Both the position numbers and the translations under genes were made by a program. The notes under the pieces were generated by a model. That model had not been told where the DNA came from. It made no database searches and saw nothing but the letters and a program-made list of their open reading frames with translations. DNA of 64,000 bases, taken from assembly GCF_027587175.1 (NCBI RefSeq), contig NZ_JAPCID010000022.1, forward strand, positions 1-64,000, written 5' to 3'. The first letter of the stretch is position 1, and the number at the start of each line of letters is the position of its first letter. Positions 1-23,428 of this stretch are shown here, one piece after another. Origin of the DNA: Solirubrobacter deserti. Its GTDB lineage: Bacteria > Actinomycetota > Thermoleophilia > Solirubrobacterales > Solirubrobacteraceae.

Positions 1-1151
1 ACACGCGGAAGCCCGGGCTGCCGGCTCGCGGCGTGCGCGCCCTCGCCGGGCTCGTCGGCGGCCCGTCGGCCGCGCTCGGCGGCGCCGCCGGCACGCTCGC
101 CCGCCGCAACGCGATGCGCAACCCGGGCCGCACGGCGGTTACCGCGCTCGCGCTGACGATCGGCGTCACGCTCGTCACCGCCGTCACCGTCGTGGCGACC
201 GGGCTCCAGAACGAGAGCTCGGGCGCGCTTGAGCGGCGCGTTCAGGCGGACACGATCATCACCGCCGCCGACGGCTGGTCCCCGATCGACCCGAAGGTCG
301 AGCAGGCGCTGACCAGCTCAACCAGCAGCATCCGCCAGGACGGCGGGCTCGTGTTCGGCGCCCAGGAGGGCATCAACGGCGTCGACCCGGCGACGATCGA
401 GCGCTTCTACCGCTTCGACTTCACCGACGGCGGCCTCACCGGCGACGGCGCGGTCGTCGACGAGGGTTTCGCCACCGAGCACGGCCTGGAGGTCGGCAGC
501 CCGCTGCGGATCCAGTCCATGGGCGGCACCACGCTCGACCTGAAGGTCTCCGGCATCGAGGAGTCGGCCATCCTCGACGTGCTCGGTCTCGGCCCGATCA
601 CGATCTCCCACGCCGCCTTCGACCGTGCGTTCGAGCAGCAGCGCAACCGGCTCACGTTCGCCGCGGACGTCCCCGCCGGCGCGCTCGCCGCGTTCCCGAA
701 CGTCCAGGTTCAGGACAAGGACGAGTTCATCGACGCGCAGACGGCCTGGATCGGCATGCTGCTCGCGATCCTGTGGGTGCTGCTGGCGCTCGCGGTGATC
801 GTCAGCCTGTTCGGCATCGTCAACACGCTCGTGCTCTCCACGTTCGAGCGGATGCGGGAGCTCGGCACGCTGCGCGCGCTCGGCTTCAGCCGCCGGCAGA
901 TCCGGCGCATGGTCCGCCACGAGAGCGTGATCACGGCGCTGATCGGCGCGACGCTCGGCATCGCCGCCGGCCTCGTGCTCGCCGTGGTGGTCGTGGAGCT
1001 GCTGGGCGAGTACGGGCTGAGCTTCACCGTCCCGGTCGGCAGCCTGCTCGTGGTCGCCGTGATCGCCGGCCTGGCGGGCATGCTCGCGGCCACGATGCCG
1101 GCGCGCCGCGCCTCCCGCATCGACGTCCTGAAGGCGCTCGCCTACGAATGA
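1..1151 (+). CDS. FtsX-type ABC transporter permease, C-terminal part (5' end outside window)
   Basis: The reading frame is open to the left edge, so this is the 3' part of a longer gene; an internal GTG lies at 33. The protein shows a membrane segment around residues 35-57, a long extracytoplasmic region of about 180 residues, then three hydrophobic segments at the C-terminus separated by the cytoplasmic loop ERMRELGTLRALGFSRRQI, which is the typical FtsX/MacB signature. Such permeases pair with an ATPase and either export lipophilic substrates or act mechanically on the envelope. The partner ATPase presumably lies upstream. It ends convergently with the kinase on the minus strand, overlapping it by 10 bases. 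Confidence 0.85.
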   Translation, partial: TRKPGLPARGVRALAGLVGGPSAALGGAAGTLARRNAMRNPGRTAVTALALTIGVTLVTAVTVVATGLQNESSGALERRVQADTIITAADGWSPIDPKVEQALTSSTSSIRQDGGLVFGAQEGINGVDPATIERFYRFDFTDGGLTGDGAVVDEGFATEHGLEVGSPLRIQSMGGTTLDLKVSGIEESAILDVLGLGPITISHAAFDRAFEQQRNRLTFAADVPAGALAAFPNVQVQDKDEFIDAQTAWIGMLLAILWVLLALAVIVSLFGIVNTLVLSTFERMRELGTLRALGFSRRQIRRMVRHESVITALIGATLGIAAGLVLAVVVVELLGEYGLSFTVPVGSLLVVAVIAGLAGMLAATMPARRASRIDVLKALAYE

Positions 1152-2851
1152 GTCTCGCGGGCCTTGGCGGCGTCGAGCGTGCTGCGGACCTCGCGCAGCA
1201 GCTCGTCGCCGTCGAACGGCTTGGCCAGGAACGCCGTCACCGGATCGTCGGTCCCGCCGAGCGGCGTATCGCCGGTGTAGCCGCTGACGAACACGACCGG
1301 CAGGCCGGGTCGCCGCTCCCGCGCCTGCACCGCGAGCTCGACGCCGCTCATCCCCGGCATCACGACGTCCGTGACGAGCACGTCGGCGGCGTCGAGCCGC
1401 TCGAGCGCGACGGCGCCGCTCTCGACTGAGATCACCTGGTAGCCCGCGGCGTACAGGATGCGGCCGGTGAGCATGCGGACGGCGTCGGCGTCCTCGACGA
1501 CGAGCACGGTCTCGCCCCGCCCGCGCGGCGCGCTGGGGGACGGATGGTCGTCGGACGCCCGCCGCACGGCGGGCAGGGTGATCGTCACGGTCGTGCCCTG
1601 ACCCGGCTCGGACTCGAGCTCGATCCGCCCGCGCGCCTTGGTCACGATCCCGTACACGGTCGCGAGCCCGAGGCCCACGCCGTGGCCGGAGACGGCCTTG
1701 GTGGTGAAGAACGGCTCGAAGGCGTGCGCGGCGACCTCCTTGGCCATGCCGCGGCCCGTGTCGGCCACGACGACCTTCACCGCGCGTGAGCTCGGGCCGT
1801 CCGGGTCGCGCATGACGGCGTTGGTGGCCTCGATCCGCAGCGTCCCGCCCTCCGGCATGGCCTCGCGCGAGTTCATGGCCAGGCTCATCAGCATCTGCTC
1901 GAGCTGGCTGCGGTCGGCCTCGACGTCCCACAACCGGTCGTCGACGTCCACCTGCAGATCGACGTCGTCGCCGAGCGTGCGGTGCAGCAGCAGCTCCAGC
2001 GACTCGATCACGCGCCGCAGCGAGAGCACCTCGGGCGTGCCGGACTGGCGGCGCGAGAACAGCAGCAGCCGGCGCGTGAGCTCGGACGCGCGGCGGGAGG
2101 CGGCGATGATCTGGTCCACGTCGCCCGCCGTGCGCGAGTCGTCGGGCAGCTCCTTGCGCACGAACGCCGCGTAGTTGGCGACGACCGCCAGCAGGTTGTT
2201 GAAGTCGTGCGCGACGCCGCCCGCGAGCTGGCCGACCGCCTCCAGCCGCTGCGCCTCGCGCAGCCGCGCCTCGAGCCGCACGTGGTGCGTGATGTCGGTC
2301 GCGATCCCGCCGACGCCGTAGATCTCGCCGCTGCGCTCGTCGATCAGCGGGAACTTGACCGACAGGAAGGTCCGCGTGTGCTCGCCGTGCGTGACCTCCT
2401 CTTGGAGCTCGATCGGTTCGCGCGAAGACATCACGCGCAGGTCGTCGACGCGCATCCGGTCGGCGACCTCGGGCGGGAGCACCTCACGGTCGTGGCGGCC
2501 GATCAGCTGCGCGGCGGGCTTGCCGTGCAGGCGCTCGAAGGCGCGGTTGACGAGCAGGTAGCGGCCCTCGGGGTCCTTGAGGAAGATCGCCGCCGTCGTG
2601 TTGTCGAGCACGGCGCGCAGCGCCCGCGGGTCGGCGGTGCGCAGCACGACGAGCTCGTACTCGCCCATCGGGCAGCGCGACACGTTCAGCCCGGCGGGCA
2701 GCTCGCCCAGCGGCGCACCGACGGGATCGCGGCCCAGCAGCTCCTTGGCCCGCGCGTTCGCGAACGCGGCGACGCCCGCCGCGTCCACCCCCACCATGGC
2801 GTCGGGTGCGGCTTCGAGCAACGCCTCGAAGGTCGGGTGGCCGGTGGGCAT
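1142..2851 (-). CDS. PAS-domain hybrid sensor histidine kinase / response regulator
   Basis: A 569-residue soluble hybrid kinase. Two PAS-like regions (about 5-60 and 75-190) precede a HisKA helix with AHDFNN, placing the phospho-acceptor at His215. The ATPase domain covers about 300-430, with N-box Asn327 and the G1 motif DTGRGM at 364-369. A C-terminal receiver (about 447-560) has acceptor Asp495 in VTDVVMPG and Lys544. There is no signal peptide or membrane segment, so it should sense a cytoplasmic cue through PAS. The AHDFNN-type box is common in hybrid kinases with a fused C-terminal receiver. No output regulator is adjacent, so the target is unknown. Confidence 0.93.
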   Translation of the reverse strand: MPTGHPTFEALLEAAPDAMVGVDAAGVAAFANARAKELLGRDPVGAPLGELPAGLNVSRCPMGEYELVVLRTADPRALRAVLDNTTAAIFLKDPEGRYLLVNRAFERLHGKPAAQLIGRHDREVLPPEVADRMRVDDLRVMSSREPIELQEEVTHGEHTRTFLSVKFPLIDERSGEIYGVGGIATDITHHVRLEARLREAQRLEAVGQLAGGVAHDFNNLLAVVANYAAFVRKELPDDSRTAGDVDQIIAASRRASELTRRLLLFSRRQSGTPEVLSLRRVIESLELLLHRTLGDDVDLQVDVDDRLWDVEADRSQLEQMLMSLAMNSREAMPEGGTLRIEATNAVMRDPDGPSSRAVKVVVADTGRGMAKEVAAHAFEPFFTTKAVSGHGVGLGLATVYGIVTKARGRIELESEPGQGTTVTITLPAVRRASDDHPSPSAPRGRGETVLVVEDADAVRMLTGRILYAAGYQVISVESGAVALERLDAADVLVTDVVMPGMSGVELAVQARERRPGLPVVFVSGYTGDTPLGGTDDPVTAFLAKPFDGDELLREVRSTLDAAKARETHS

Positions 2852-17076: not shown

Positions 17077-17083
17077 GGCCTGT

Positions 17084-17608
17084 ATGAAGCTGATCCCGCT
17101 CGTGCTGCTGTGCTGCTTCGCTCTCGTCGCCTGCGGAGGGGAGGACGAGCCGTCCGCGCCGGCGGCCGAGAACACGCCGGCGGCCACGGCGAAAGCCGAG
17201 GAGACGCAGGCGGCCGGCGGCGGCGACGCGGGCGGCGAGGACGCCCTGCGCGCGATGTTCGACGACTACACCAAGGCGCTCGGCGCGCGCGACTGGGGCG
17301 CGGCGTGCTCGCATCTGGCGCCGGAGACGACGGAGAAGCTCAAGAGCAACGTCGCGCAGCTGGGCATGACCGACGCGCCGGACGACTGCGAGGGCCTGAT
17401 GGACACGCTCTACACGCAGATCGACAAGGACCCGACGGCCAAGAAGACGATCGACGACATCACGCAGACCGCGAAGGTGTCCGACGTCAAGATCACCGGC
17501 GACCAGGCGTCCGTCAGCTGGAGCGCGAAGGTGAACGGCGTGGACACGCCCGTCACGCAGACGGCACGCATAATCGACGGCGAGTGGAAGCTGATCGACG
17601 TGAACTAG
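17084..17608 (+). CDS. Secreted lipoprotein of unknown function
   Basis: 174 residues started at ATG 17084, chosen because it begins a classical lipoprotein signal with lipobox LVAC and lipidated Cys17; an in-frame ATG far upstream (16961) would bury that signal. A Glu/Ala/Thr-rich linker follows, then a region from about 60 with a DALRAMFDDYTKALGARDW motif and a C-terminal TARIIDGEWKLIDVN, reminiscent of NTF2/SnoaL-like extracellular folds. The gene overlaps the next (GAF kinase) by 25 bases. Confidence 0.8.
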   Translation: MKLIPLVLLCCFALVACGGEDEPSAPAAENTPAATAKAEETQAAGGGDAGGEDALRAMFDDYTKALGARDWGAACSHLAPETTEKLKSNVAQLGMTDAPDDCEGLMDTLYTQIDKDPTAKKTIDDITQTAKVSDVKITGDQASVSWSAKVNGVDTPVTQTARIIDGEWKLIDVN

Positions 17609-18801
17609 AGCTCGCCGCGACCCGGGAGATCCTCGAGGTCCTCGGGCGCTGCGCGTTCGAGCTCGAGCCCGTCTTCGAGACGGTGCTCGGGCAGGCCGTG
17701 CGCCTGTGCCGCGCGGACGCGGGCCTGATCTACGTGCTCGACGGCGACGCGTACCGGGTCGAGGTCGCGCTCGGCGCGTCGCAGGAGTACCGCGACTACA
17801 TCGCCGGCGTGCCGATCGAGGCGGGCTCCGGGACGCTGGTGGGACGGGTCGGCGCCGAGCGCCGCACGGTGCAGATCCTCGACGCGCCCGCGGACCCGAA
17901 GTACACGATGTCGCGCGCGCTCGAGCTCGGCGGCTTCCGCACGATGCTCGGCGTGCCGATGCTCGACGGCGAGCGGGTGCTGGGCGTGATCGTGCTCTGG
18001 CGCGAGCTCAAGCAGCCGTTCGACGAGCCGACCGTCGAGCTGGTGACGACGTTCGCGGCACAGGGCGCGATCGCGATCCAGAACGTGCAGACCGCGCGCG
18101 AGCTGGAGGTCGCGAGCGGCCACAAGTCCGCGTTCCTGGCGTCCATGTCGCACGAGCTGCGCACGCCGCTGAACGCCGTGATCGGCTTCTCGGACGTGCT
18201 GCTGGAGGAGATGTTCGGGCCGCTGAACGAGCGCCAGGCCGAGTACGTGCGCGACATCCGTGACTCCGGCCGGCACCTGCTCGAGCTCATCAACGAGATC
18301 CTGGACCTGAGCAAGGTCGAGGCGGGGCGGATGGAGCTCGAGCCGTCCGCGGTGTCATTGCCGGAGCTCCTGGACGGCGGCATGGCGCTGGTGCGCGAGC
18401 GGGCGGCGCGCCAGGCGCTGACCGTGACGCTGGATGTGGGCGAGGAGGTGGGGCTCGTGTGGGGCGACGCGGTCAAGCTCAAGCAGGTGGTGGTGAACCT
18501 GCTCACCAACGCGGTCAAGTTCACGCCGTCGGGCGGGTCGGTGGCGGTCACGGCGTCGCTGGAGGGCGGGGAGGTCGTGGTGCTGGTGCGCGACAGCGGG
18601 GTCGGGATCGCGGAGACCGACCAGGAGCGCATCTTCGAGGCCTTCCAGCGCGGCGACCGGCGCGTCTCGACCGAGGGCACCGGGCTCGGGCTGACGCTGT
18701 CCAAGCGCTTCGTCGAGCTGCACGGCGGGCGCATCTGGGTGGACAGCGCGGTCGGCGTGGGGAGCACGTTCGGGTTCGCGATCCCGGTGGGCGCGCCGTG
18801 A
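17584..18801 (+). CDS. GAF-domain sensor histidine kinase
   Basis: 405 residues from GTG 17584, the only start that keeps the conserved ATREILEVLGRCAFELEPVFETVL helix before the GAF domain (about 25-165); this costs a 25-base overlap with the lipoprotein gene. The HisKA box [16 protein letters not shown] puts the phospho-acceptor at His190, and an ATPase domain with N-box, DSGVGI and GTGLGL follows. There is no membrane segment. Such kinases normally pass phosphate to small DivK/CheY-like receivers, and the next frame is the remnant of one. Confidence 0.88.
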   Translation: MEADRRELELAATREILEVLGRCAFELEPVFETVLGQAVRLCRADAGLIYVLDGDAYRVEVALGASQEYRDYIAGVPIEAGSGTLVGRVGAERRTVQILDAPADPKYTMSRALELGGFRTMLGVPMLDGERVLGVIVLWRELKQPFDEPTVELVTTFAAQGAIAIQNVQTARELEVASGHKSAFLASMSHELRTPLNAVIGFSDVLLEEMFGPLNERQAEYVRDIRDSGRHLLELINEILDLSKVEAGRMELEPSAVSLPELLDGGMALVRERAARQALTVTLDVGEEVGLVWGDAVKLKQVVVNLLTNAVKFTPSGGSVAVTASLEGGEVVVLVRDSGVGIAETDQERIFEAFQRGDRRVSTEGTGLGLTLSKRFVELHGGRIWVDSAVGVGSTFGFAIPVGAP

Positions 18802-18926
18802 AGGTGCTCGTCGTCGAGGACAACGAGCGCAACGCGAAGCTCGGGCGCGACGTGCTCTCCTACGCGGGCCACGAGGTCGTGGTGGCCGGGTTGCTCGCGG
18901 ACCAGATCGAGGCGCTGCGCGCGTGA
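18798..18926 (+). pseudogene. Collapsed receiver-domain remnant (42 residues)
   Basis: The frame starts GTGA-coupled to the kinase and reads MKVLVVEDNERNAKLGRDVLSYAGHEV as far as beta2, exactly like DivK-type receivers. It then jumps to LLADQIEALRA and stops, with the phospho-acceptor Asp, the Thr and the Lys missing. A normal receiver has about 120 residues. The simplest reading is an internal in-frame deletion that kept start, stop and translational coupling to the next gene. A functional micro-receiver is much less likely. Confidence 0.7.
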
Positions 18927-19921
18927 TCCTCGTCGTCGACGACCTGCCGCAGAACGTGCGGCTGCTGGAGGCCGTGCTGGCGCCGCGCGGATACGAGGTC
19001 GTGTCGGCGGCCTCCGGGGAGGAGGCGCTCGAGCGCCTGGACGGCGTGGACCTCGTCCTGCTCGACGTCGTCATGCCGGGGCTGGACGGCTACGAGGTCT
19101 GCCGCCGCATCCGCGCCGACCCGGACACCGCGTTCCTGCCCGTGGTGATGATCACGGCGAGCGGCGAGCAGGAGAAGAAGCGCGCGCTGGACGCGGGTGC
19201 CGACGACTTCCTGACCAAGCCGTTCGACCACGCCGAGCTGCTCGCGCGCGTGCGGTCGCTCGTGCGCCTGAAGCGCTACCACGACGAGGTCGACCGCTAC
19301 ACGGCCGGCCTGCGCCGCTTCCTGCCGCCCGAGGTGGCCGAGCTGGTGAAGGCCGACCCGGCGTTGCTGGAGAGCCACCGGCGCGAGGTCGCGGTGCTCG
19401 TCTGCGGCCTGCACGGCTTCCCGGCCTTCGCCGAGACCGCGGCGCCCGAGGACGTGATGGACGTGCTGGGCGAGTACCACGCCGCGCTCGGCGACGTGAT
19501 CGACGCGTTCTCGGCCACGCTCTCGCGCATCGCGGGCGACGTCGTGACCGTCGTGCTCAACGACCCGGTGCCGTGCGAGGACGTCGCGGGCACCGCGGTG
19601 CGGTTGTCGCTGGCGTTGCGCGACCGCGTGTGGGAGCTGGGCGAGCGCTGGACGCGGCTCGGCTTCGAGCTCTCCCCGGCGCTCGGCGTCGCGCTCGGCC
19701 ACGCCACGATCGGCCGCATCGGCTCCGACCGCCGCTGGCAGTACGCCCCGGTCGGCCCCGCGCCGCTGCTCGCCGAACGCCTCGCCGAGGCGGCCGGCGC
19801 CGGCGAGGTCCTGATCTCCCAGCGCGTCGAGGCGGGCACCGAGGCGGTCACCTCGCCGCTCACCCTCCAGCTGCGCGGCTTCACGCGCCCCGTCGCCGCC
19901 TACGACCTGCTCGGAACCTAA
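18923..19921 (+). CDS. Response regulator with degenerate class III nucleotide cyclase domain
   Basis: 332 residues. The receiver (1-120) has acidic residues Asp6 and Asp7, acceptor Asp48 (LLDVVMPG) and Lys99. Residues about 155-325 resemble a class III adenylate/guanylate cyclase homology domain. The first metal site, normally FxDxxGF, reads VCGLHGF at 160-166, so its Asp is lost, while the second (GD at 205-206) is kept. The usual VNLAAR Asn region is PLLAER. Catalysis is therefore doubtful and a regulatory role more likely. It starts as GTGA on the receiver remnant, making the end of a four-gene coupled operon. Confidence 0.82.
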   Translation: MILVVDDLPQNVRLLEAVLAPRGYEVVSAASGEEALERLDGVDLVLLDVVMPGLDGYEVCRRIRADPDTAFLPVVMITASGEQEKKRALDAGADDFLTKPFDHAELLARVRSLVRLKRYHDEVDRYTAGLRRFLPPEVAELVKADPALLESHRREVAVLVCGLHGFPAFAETAAPEDVMDVLGEYHAALGDVIDAFSATLSRIAGDVVTVVLNDPVPCEDVAGTAVRLSLALRDRVWELGERWTRLGFELSPALGVALGHATIGRIGSDRRWQYAPVGPAPLLAERLAEAAGAGEVLISQRVEAGTEAVTSPLTLQLRGFTRPVAAYDLLGT

Positions 19922-20535
19922 CCGCCGCCGCCGCAGCCTCCTCCGCCGCAGCCGCCTCCGCCGCCGTCGGAGCTGCTGCCGCCGTCACCGCCGAGGAAGC
20001 CGCCCATCCACCAGCCGCCGCTGTCGCTGCTGCTGGAGCTGCTCGAGGCGGAGCGGCGGCGCTTGCGGAACTCCGGAGGACGGGAGAAGCTCTCGCGCAT
20101 GCGTCGTAGCTCGACGTCGGAGTAGACGTTGCCGCCCGCCCAGCCCGTGTCCTCGTCGGCGGTGAAGAGGACCATCGGGATCTGGTGGCGGTCGACGATG
20201 TCGAGCGTGGTCGGGATCAGGCTGCTCGCGGCGACGGTCATCGTCGACTCCGGCGTGTGGTGCAGGTAATGGCCGAAGGCGCGCTCGCAGAACTCGGTGT
20301 ACTCGCGGGTGCGCAGGATGAACTCGTGCCAGGCGACGTCCACGACCTCGGACGGCATGCCGATCATGCGCCCCTCGGCGTGCAGGCAGGCCAGGAACCA
20401 GGCGTCGAGGCCCTTGAGGGCGCGCAGGGCGGTGGCGCGGTCGCCGAGCTTGTCCTCGAGCTTGGCGACGAAGTCGGGCGCGTACTCGTACTGCTCGATG
20501 AACTTGCGCCGGCGGTTGCGGGTGTAGGTCTTCAT
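19918..20535 (-). CDS. Protein with AWHEF motif and Gly/Cys-rich tail
   Basis: 205 residues. The N-terminal half contains LDAWFLACLHAEGRMIGMPSEVVDVAWHEFILRTREYTEFCERAFG, resembling the glycine-rich-domain-containing family, in which a Trp-His motif recurs. The C-terminus changes to a Ser run, then Gly-rich sequence ending in two Cys-Gly4 repeats. The function is unknown. It converges on the receiver-cyclase gene with a 4-base overlap. The Gly/Cys tail might bind metal or be modified, which is speculation. Confidence 0.65.
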   Translation of the reverse strand: MKTYTRNRRRKFIEQYEYAPDFVAKLEDKLGDRATALRALKGLDAWFLACLHAEGRMIGMPSEVVDVAWHEFILRTREYTEFCERAFGHYLHHTPESTMTVAASSLIPTTLDIVDRHQIPMVLFTADEDTGWAGGNVYSDVELRRMRESFSRPPEFRKRRRSASSSSSSSDSGGWWMGGFLGGDGGSSSDGGGGGCGGGGCGGGG

Positions 20536-22912: not shown

Positions 22913-23428
22913 ATGAGCGGCACCGACGACGAGCAGCCGCCGCAGGCTCCACCCCCGTGGCAGACGACGCCGCCGCAGTGGGCGCCTCCGCCCGGGCCGC
23001 CGCCGGCGGAAGGGGCGCCGCCCGCGGAAGGCGCGCCGCCGGCGGAAGGGGCGCCGCCCGCGGAAGGCGCGCCGCCGGCGTGGCAGCGGCCGGCACCGCC
23101 CCCTCCGCTCGGCTCGGCGCCGGTTCCCCAGTGGCAGCCGCCGGCCGGCTCGTACTGGACGCAGTCGAAGGCCTGGCAGCCCCCGCCGCCGACGCCGGGC
23201 AGCGCCACCGCGGCGCTCATCCTCGGGATCACGGCGGTGCTGGTGTTCCCGCTCGCGTTCCCGCTCGCGCTCGGGTTCGGCATCCGGGCCAAGCGCCGGA
23301 TCGACGCGTCCGAGGGCACGCTGGGCGGCCGCGGGCAGGCCAAGTGGGGCATCGCGCTGGGCTGGGCCGGAGCCGTGCTGACGCTGGTCGCCGTCGCGAT
23401 GGTCGCCGGCTACCTCGCTACGGACTGA
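22913..23428 (+). CDS. DUF4190-type membrane protein with Pro/Ala-rich N-terminus
   Basis: 171 residues, 3 bases after the preceding paralog. The N-terminal part contains four copies of AEGAPP and other Pro-rich sequence; the C-terminal half has the DUF4190 pair of hydrophobic segments and the loop RAKRRIDASEGTLGGRGQAKWGIAL. Tandem duplication followed by divergence of the soluble tails is the likely origin. The 3' end overlaps the convergent DUF2752 gene by 11 bases. Confidence 0.8.
   Translation: MSGTDDEQPPQAPPPWQTTPPQWAPPPGPPPAEGAPPAEGAPPAEGAPPAEGAPPAWQRPAPPPPLGSAPVPQWQPPAGSYWTQSKAWQPPPPTPGSATAALILGITAVLVFPLAFPLALGFGIRAKRRIDASEGTLGGRGQAKWGIALGWAGAVLTLVAVAMVAGYLATD
22999..23080 (+). repeat. 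18-bp tandem repeat (four copies) in a DUF4190 gene
   Basis: GGAAG cores recur at 23008, 23026, 23044 and 23062, i.e. with exact 18-base period, encoding AEGAPP repeats. Alternate copies are nearly identical, suggesting a 36-base unit that duplicated once. Such coding repeats can change copy number by slippage. Confidence 0.8.

What the first reader, a model, noticed from the sequence alone, without database searches (positions are those of the whole stretch)
18798..18926. Collapsed receiver kept in frame inside a signalling operon
The receiver between a GAF kinase and a receiver-cyclase protein has lost its phospho-acceptor and most of its fold, but both GTGA couplings survive. The kinase may now signal to the following receiver instead.
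Basis: partly seen in the sequence, partly recalled or inferred. Interest (0 to 1): 0.55.

Follow-up and report, generated by a model that had tools for sequence, protein, structure and literature searches.

The report
Internally deleted receiver gene remnant
In one soil bacterium the middle gene of a signalling operon has lost about two thirds of its length in an in-frame deletion, while the relatives examined keep the whole gene; most likely this is an ordinary, fairly recent gene loss rather than a new device.

Summary
Window 18798-18926 is a 42-codon frame with 4-base GTGA overlaps to the GAF histidine kinase before it and the receiver-cyclase gene after it. All 7 other genomes in which I found this cassette (3 of the genus, one of them Solirubrobacter soli; 4 more distant) carry a receiver of about 115-126 aa there. 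The window copy keeps beta1-alpha1-beta2 and the alpha5 tail; about 73 codons (alpha2 to beta5) with phospho-acceptor Asp and Lys are gone. A second assembly of the species shows the same deletion, so a one-off assembly error is unlikely; strain-level dating was impossible. Rewiring is not shown: the second receiver is intact and ancestral; relative-rate tests are not significant, though the receiver-cyclase gene has a raised dN/dS on this branch. The "cyclase" lacks a metal-binding Asp and a catalytic Asn in the four Solirubrobacter sequences, so it is probably a pseudo-cyclase. Best reading: lineage-specific loss of the middle receiver, the remnant perhaps still passing ribosomes to the next gene. 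Ordinary, modest interest.

The parts
17084..17608 (+). small lipoprotein-like gene (MKLIPLVLLCCFALVACGG...), first gene of the overlapping run; no Pfam match
   Evidence: translation; Pfam (0 families at E 0.001; queried as 17081-17605)
17584..18801 (+). GAF-HisKA-HATPase histidine kinase, 405 aa from GTG 17584; start lies inside the preceding gene (25-base overlap)
   Evidence: Pfam GAF, HisKA, HATPase_c on 17608-18801; start codon inferred from the frame shared with G003 and G004; orthologs 91, 88 and 78% identical
18798..18801 (+). GTGA stop/start overlap, kinase to middle receiver
   Evidence: overlap of the same type (ATGA or GTGA) in L002, L003, L004 and L005
18798..18926 (+). middle receiver remnant, 42 codons plus stop
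   Evidence: intact orthologs
18798..18890 (+). N-terminal part of the remnant: beta1, alpha1, beta2 (keeps metal-site Glu7 and Asp8)
   Evidence: matches L003 receiver residues 2-31; secondary structure of the intact L003 receiver
18891..18923 (+). C-terminal alpha5 tail of the remnant; deletion junction at about 18888-18896
   Evidence: codons 32-40: 20 of 27 bases match codons 105-113 of L003 and 20 of 27 match codons 109-117 of L004; 18 of 27 for L002
18923..18926 (+). GTGA stop/start overlap, remnant to receiver-cyclase gene
18923..19921 (+). receiver plus class III cyclase-like protein, 332 aa: intact receiver (residues 2-111), cyclase-like domain (154-304) lacking the first metal Asp and the catalytic Asn
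   Evidence: Pfam; alignments

Best explanation
A DivK-type stand-alone receiver, the middle gene of an old kinase / receiver / receiver-cyclase cassette, was destroyed in this Solirubrobacter lineage by one in-frame internal deletion of about 73 codons (alpha2 to beta5). SHOWN: the 42-codon frame, its two 4-base overlaps, the intact orthologs, and the same deletion in a second assembly of the species. INFERRED: the remnant does not take or pass phosphate, since Asp49, the Thr/Ser switch position and Lys99 are gone, and as protein it is probably unfolded and degraded. INFERRED: its reading frame still acts as a short bridge on which ribosomes terminate and restart from the kinase to the receiver-cyclase gene, so the downstream gene stays translated; an out-of-frame deletion would more likely have been polar. 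INFERRED: the kinase keeps the partner it always also had, the following receiver, whose output domain is a pseudo-cyclase. The whole cassette looks weakly needed: 2 of 7 genomes of the genus gave no match for its kinase or its receiver-cyclase protein at the cut-offs used.
For: Frame and overlaps. Intact middle receiver in all 7 other genomes in which I found the cassette: G004, G003, G005, G019, L030, L031, L034. Deletion identical in G041: 0 differences over the 3,993-base locus and 2 over 60,000 bases, both in the first 60 bases of the window's contig. No relocated intact copy: best match to the L003 receiver elsewhere in G000 is 42% identical, against 84% between the L003 and L002 orthologs. 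Fold map of the intact L003 receiver (mean pLDDT 94.6) puts the missing part at alpha2 to beta5. 4-base overlaps at both junctions in L002, L003, L004 and L005. Cassette in 5 of 7 genomes of the genus, two of the five being this species. Cyclase residues lost in 4 of 4 Solirubrobacter rows and kept in 5 of 5 outside rows.
Against: The N part of the remnant has not decayed visibly: its branch dN (0.074) equals that of the intact L002 copy (0.075). All 42 codons end in G or C, but so do 371 of 376 in the kinase part compared, so this says little. Neutral drift since the G004 split is weakly disfavoured for the N part (P 0.115, 0.036, 0.010 for three values of dS), so either the deletion is young or the remnant is still constrained. 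The count that includes the tail lies between neutral (P 0.195, 0.060, 0.015) and constrained (P 0.007, 0.022, 0.052) expectations, with few sites and a hand-counted tail. No expression or translation data exist here.
Confidence: 0.8

Rival explanations
1. The remnant is a functional mini-protein: it keeps alpha1 and alpha5, elements by which receivers usually dock on the kinase helices (recalled, no call), and acts as a phosphate-free decoy or inhibitor of the kinase, in the manner of FixT, Osp or the 46-residue Sda.
For: N part looks constrained; breakpoints fall between secondary-structure elements, leaving beta1-alpha1-beta2 and alpha5; receiver-like kinase inhibitors that are not phosphorylated exist (PMC9430884, sections 7 and 13; PMC7078487, abstract and section 13).
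Against: Found in one species only. Residue 16 in alpha1, Ala in L002 and L003 and Val in L004, is Gly here. The tail differs at three positions that are identical in the three Solirubrobacter orthologs. AlphaFold on the single sequence gives one long helix, five models from 55.1 to 89.8 mean pLDDT, no receiver-like core. Osp shows a complete receiver topology and FixT is a single-domain receiver protein.
Confidence: 0.06
2. Loss of the middle receiver rewired or freed the pathway: phosphate once shared with the middle receiver now all goes to the receiver-cyclase protein, and that gene has been changing.
For: Second receiver is intact. On the window branch the receiver-cyclase gene has dN 0.083 and dS 0.135, against 0.045 and 0.324 on the L002 branch; for the kinase it is 0.037 and 0.197 against 0.024 and 0.157. 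Window-derived changes in the receiver-cyclase protein outnumber L002-derived ones 28 to 15 with L003 as outgroup, p 0.066; 12 to 5 where L003 and L004 agree, p 0.14.
Against: None of these tests is significant; with L004 as outgroup it is 20 to 14, p 0.39; receiver part alone 11 to 4 (p 0.12) and 6 to 4 (p 0.75); kinase 15 to 10 and 11 to 11. Branch dS values from three-way distances are noisy. The second receiver is ancestral, and the cyclase domain is degenerate in the Solirubrobacter sequences, so faster change may only be relaxed constraint.
Confidence: 0.1
3. Sequencing or assembly artefact: a collapsed stretch in a GC-rich draft genome.
For: Draft assemblies only; 2.45% contamination estimated for G000.
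Against: G041, listed as another assembly of the species with different contigs (872,692 bases against 111,952), has the identical junction. But both may be assemblies of one strain, and reads could not be inspected.
Confidence: 0.03

Closest known systems
Stand-alone (DivK/CheY-type, name recalled) receiver of a kinase / receiver / receiver-cyclase operon
   Same: Position, overlaps, N-terminal beta1-alpha1-beta2 and alpha5 tail are those of this gene in 7 related cassettes
   Different: About 73 codons with phospho-acceptor Asp, switch residue and Lys are missing; not a working receiver
Ordinary bacterial gene remnants left by internal deletion
   Same: Seen in one species only, intact orthologs in the relatives examined, patchy cassette
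   Different: Frame and both stop/start overlaps remain, so the downstream gene need not be affected
Receiver-like kinase inhibitors FixT and Osp (PMC7078487, PMC9430884)
   Same: Receiver-derived protein that presumably cannot be phosphorylated, in the same cell as a histidine kinase
   Different: They are whole receiver proteins with shown activity; the remnant is 42 aa, most of the fold missing, no activity shown
Sda, 46-residue kinase inhibitor (described in PMC9430884, section 13)
   Same: Size only
   Different: Sda is an antiparallel hairpin that binds its kinase; a relation in sequence was not tested

Membership tests
Response_reg receiver (PF00072) | profile match | tested here: not met
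   0 Pfam families for the 42-aa protein up to E 10; L002 and L003 orthologs match at 3.3e-25 and 2.4e-24
Response_reg receiver (PF00072) | acidic metal pair after beta1 | tested here: met
   Glu7-Asp8 kept; both columns invariant in the 7 rows of A4
Response_reg receiver (PF00072) | phospho-acceptor Asp after beta3, Lys after beta5 | tested here: not met
   Asp49 and Lys99 of L003, invariant in the 7 rows of A4, lie in the deleted part
Descendant of the middle gene of the HK / REC / REC-cyclase cassette | same place and overlaps, homologous ends | tested here: met
FixT/Osp-like kinase inhibitor | complete receiver-like fold | tested here: not met
   42 aa without alpha2 to beta5; single-sequence model is one helix
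FixT/Osp-like kinase inhibitor | direct inhibition of kinase autophosphorylation | not testable with these tools
   needs a biochemical assay
Pseudogene / gene remnant | intact orthologs in relatives and loss confined to one lineage | tested here: met
   7 of 7 other genomes found with the cassette are intact; both assemblies of this species are short
Pseudogene / gene remnant | no purifying selection on what is left | tested here: inconclusive
   values lie between neutral and constrained
Class III nucleotide cyclase (downstream protein) | two metal-binding Asp and the catalytic Asn (roles recalled) | tested here: not met
   in the rows window, L002, L003, L004 the first Asp is Gly, Gly, Ala, Ala and the Asn is Leu, Leu, Leu, Thr; second Asp kept; 5 of 5 outside rows have both Asp and the Asn; alignments with CyaB (3r5g), 2w01 and 6fht agree for the window protein

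The most novel reading that the evidence does not exclude
A receiver has been cut down by one deletion to a 42-residue peptide that keeps its kinase-docking elements (alpha1 and alpha5) and now works as a phosphate-free inhibitor or specificity decoy for the kinase encoded just upstream, made in step with it by stop/start coupling.
Probability: 0.05. Interest if true: 0.6.

Novelty: new member of a known kind. Interest (0 to 1): 0.22.

Why it matters
It is a clean natural experiment: closely related operons with and without the middle receiver, so the role of a stand-alone receiver between a kinase and a receiver-output protein could be measured by comparing them. It also shows that the annotated cyclase output of this operon is probably dead in the Solirubrobacter sequences examined, which would mislead function prediction. 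As a phenomenon, an in-frame internal deletion in a dispensable signalling gene is ordinary.

Tried and rejected
Assembly error: rejected as a one-off because G041 has the same junction; the two assemblies may still come from one strain. Relocated intact copy: rejected. Same short frame in other genera: not found. The family search covered 146 genomes, with 14 candidates scored per genome; 6 (G000, G041, G003, G004, G005, G019) matched the receiver-cyclase protein at E 1e-45 or better. I looked at 12 of these 80 loci: 4 (L029, L030, L031, L034) show a kinase, a separate full-length receiver and a receiver-cyclase gene in this order; L029 is the same genome as L004 and was not counted twice; the other 8 have other arrangements or too little upstream sequence. 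Among these 8, L089 has a hybrid kinase whose own C-terminal receiver is split over two frames, so it is not a separate middle receiver and was not counted. The kinases of L030 and G019 carry a fused receiver of their own. Precise dating: only bracketed. Selection on the remnant: inconclusive; the tail changes (3) and tail sites (18) were set by hand, the N-part count (5) is branch dN times sites, and dS was taken from kinase and receiver-cyclase, the remnant's own branch dS being 0.327 on only 23 sites. Junction microhomology: not decidable without the lost bases; the repeat finder gave an 87% match of a 15-base stretch at the junction with the alpha5 part of the second receiver, read only as support that the tail is an alpha5. 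Promoter scan: none found; two terminator-like matches on the minus strand, 0.8 expected. Structure of the remnant from its single sequence: uninformative. Five paper searches showed no paper on this operon in the rows listed (15 of 253, 8 of 40, 10 of 22, 6 of 13, 6 of 89); two papers were opened, in part.

Full report
What is there. The window belongs to a genome of the genus Solirubrobacter: its genus-mate G005 has a contig of 634,764 bases, the length of the Solirubrobacter soli DSM 22325 contig that gave L029. Four genes overlap in one run: a small lipoprotein-like gene (17084-17608), a GAF-HisKA-HATPase kinase whose GTG start at 17584 lies inside it, the 42-codon frame 18798-18926, and a 332-aa receiver-cyclase protein 18923-19921. 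Both overlaps around the short frame are GTGA. The finding's coordinates and description are correct.

What it was. The three genus-mates with the operon carry a receiver in this place: 115 aa in G004 (L002), 116 in G003 (L003), about 122 in S. soli (L004), with 4-base overlaps, ATGA or GTGA, on both sides. Outside the genus, G019 (125 aa, ATGA on both sides) and loci L030, L031 and L034 (about 122-126 aa, starts not verified) have the same order, kinase / receiver / receiver-cyclase. So 7 of 7 other genomes in which I found the cassette have the gene intact; of 80 loci returned by the genome-contig scan I looked at 12. The cassette is in 5 of 7 genomes of the genus, two of the five being this species; in a search of 146 family genomes 6 had a strong match to the receiver-cyclase protein.

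What is missing. The remnant's N part matches residues 2-31 of the L003 receiver at 80% identity. Codons 32-40 match the C-terminal alpha5: 20 of 27 bases against L003, 9 of 2000 codon shuffles as good; 20 of 27 against L004, 15 of 2000; 18 of 27 against L002, 344 of 2000; against 10-12 of 27 if placed right after codon 31. The L003 receiver models confidently as a (beta-alpha)5 fold, mean pLDDT 94.6, with beta1 2-6, alpha1 10-22, beta2 26-30 and alpha5 106-115. About 73 codons, alpha2 through beta5, are therefore gone, with Asp49 and Lys99, both invariant in the seven receivers of A4. Glu7-Asp8 remain. The frame is kept, which one deletion in three would do by chance.

Is it real. G041, listed as the same species, is identical over the 3,993-base locus and differs at 2 of 60,000 bases compared, both in the first 60 bases of the window's contig. 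Its contig is 872,692 bases against 111,952. That makes a one-off assembly error unlikely, but the near-identity means the two may be the same strain, so it says nothing about spread in the species. No second intact copy was found in either assembly: the best match to the L003 receiver elsewhere is 42% identical.

Age and selection. The deletion followed the split from the G004 lineage. Branch synonymous distance of the window lineage is 0.135 (receiver-cyclase) to 0.197 (kinase). On the remnant's N part the window-branch dN (0.074) equals that of the intact L002 copy (0.075). All 42 codons end in G or C, but this is nearly so in the neighbouring genes too (kinase 371 of 376, receiver-cyclase 328 of 332). 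The N part alone fits constraint somewhat better than neutral drift over the whole branch; adding three changes in the tail, at positions identical in the three Solirubrobacter orthologs, pulls it towards decay. The counts are tiny. The result is: young deletion or residual constraint, not resolved.

Consequences. The second receiver keeps its conserved residues and is present in all 7 relatives with the cassette, so the kinase did not gain it as a replacement. Relative-rate tests give no significant change on this branch: kinase 15 against 10 and 11 against 11; receiver-cyclase 28 against 15 (p 0.066), 20 against 14 (p 0.39), and 12 against 5 where both outgroups agree (p 0.14). Against a simple 'nothing changed', the receiver-cyclase gene has dN 0.083 with dS 0.135 on the window branch and 0.045 with 0.324 on the L002 branch, a raised ratio that could mean relaxed constraint or adaptation, or noise in dS. 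The cyclase-like domain lacks the first metal-binding Asp and the catalytic Asn in 4 of 4 Solirubrobacter rows, while 5 of 5 rows from outside keep both; alignment with solved cyclases shows the same for the window protein. Residue roles are recalled. So the output is probably not a cyclic nucleotide, and this was so before the deletion.

Reading. Most likely the middle receiver was lost by a single in-frame deletion in a dispensable cassette. Stop/start overlaps of this kind are reported to couple translation (abstract starts seen in the listing: PMC6728339, PMC10666635, PMC12548453), so the remnant may still hand ribosomes to the next gene; that is inference. A bolder reading, that the peptide is an inhibitor of its kinase, has precedents in whole receiver proteins: Osp (PMC9430884, outline and sections 7 and 13 read) and FixT (PMC7078487, outline with abstract and section 13 read). 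Nothing found here favours it beyond the retained alpha1 and alpha5 and the undecayed N part.

Noticed in passing
window 19382-19834 and L002, L003, L004: Cyclase-like domain of the downstream protein lacks the first metal Asp and the catalytic Asn in the four Solirubrobacter sequences, but not in five outside relatives: probably a pseudo-cyclase.
   Followed up: yes
window 18923-19921: Receiver-cyclase gene has a raised dN/dS on the window branch, not significant in relative-rate tests.
   Followed up: partly
window 17584-17608: The kinase gene starts inside the lipoprotein-like gene before it (25-base overlap); the same frame is present in G003, and G004 has an equivalent GTG start.
   Followed up: partly
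L089 3771-4099: In a cyanobacterial MAG a hybrid kinase next to a receiver-cyclase gene has its own C-terminal receiver split over two frames, perhaps a sequencing error (coverage about 4 in the record title).
   Followed up: partly
genomes G001 and G002: Two genomes of the genus gave no match to the kinase (E 1e-60) or the receiver-cyclase protein (E 1e-50), so the cassette seems dispensable.
   Followed up: no
window 19918-20535, minus strand: 205-aa frame ending in a Gly-rich tail (GGGGGCGGGGCGGGG); no Pfam match at E 0.001.
   Followed up: no
window 22913-23428: Frame with a run of APPAEG repeats near its N-terminus.
   Followed up: no
window 1142-2851, minus strand: Another kinase-like frame with a C-terminal receiver, unrelated to the finding.
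   Followed up: no
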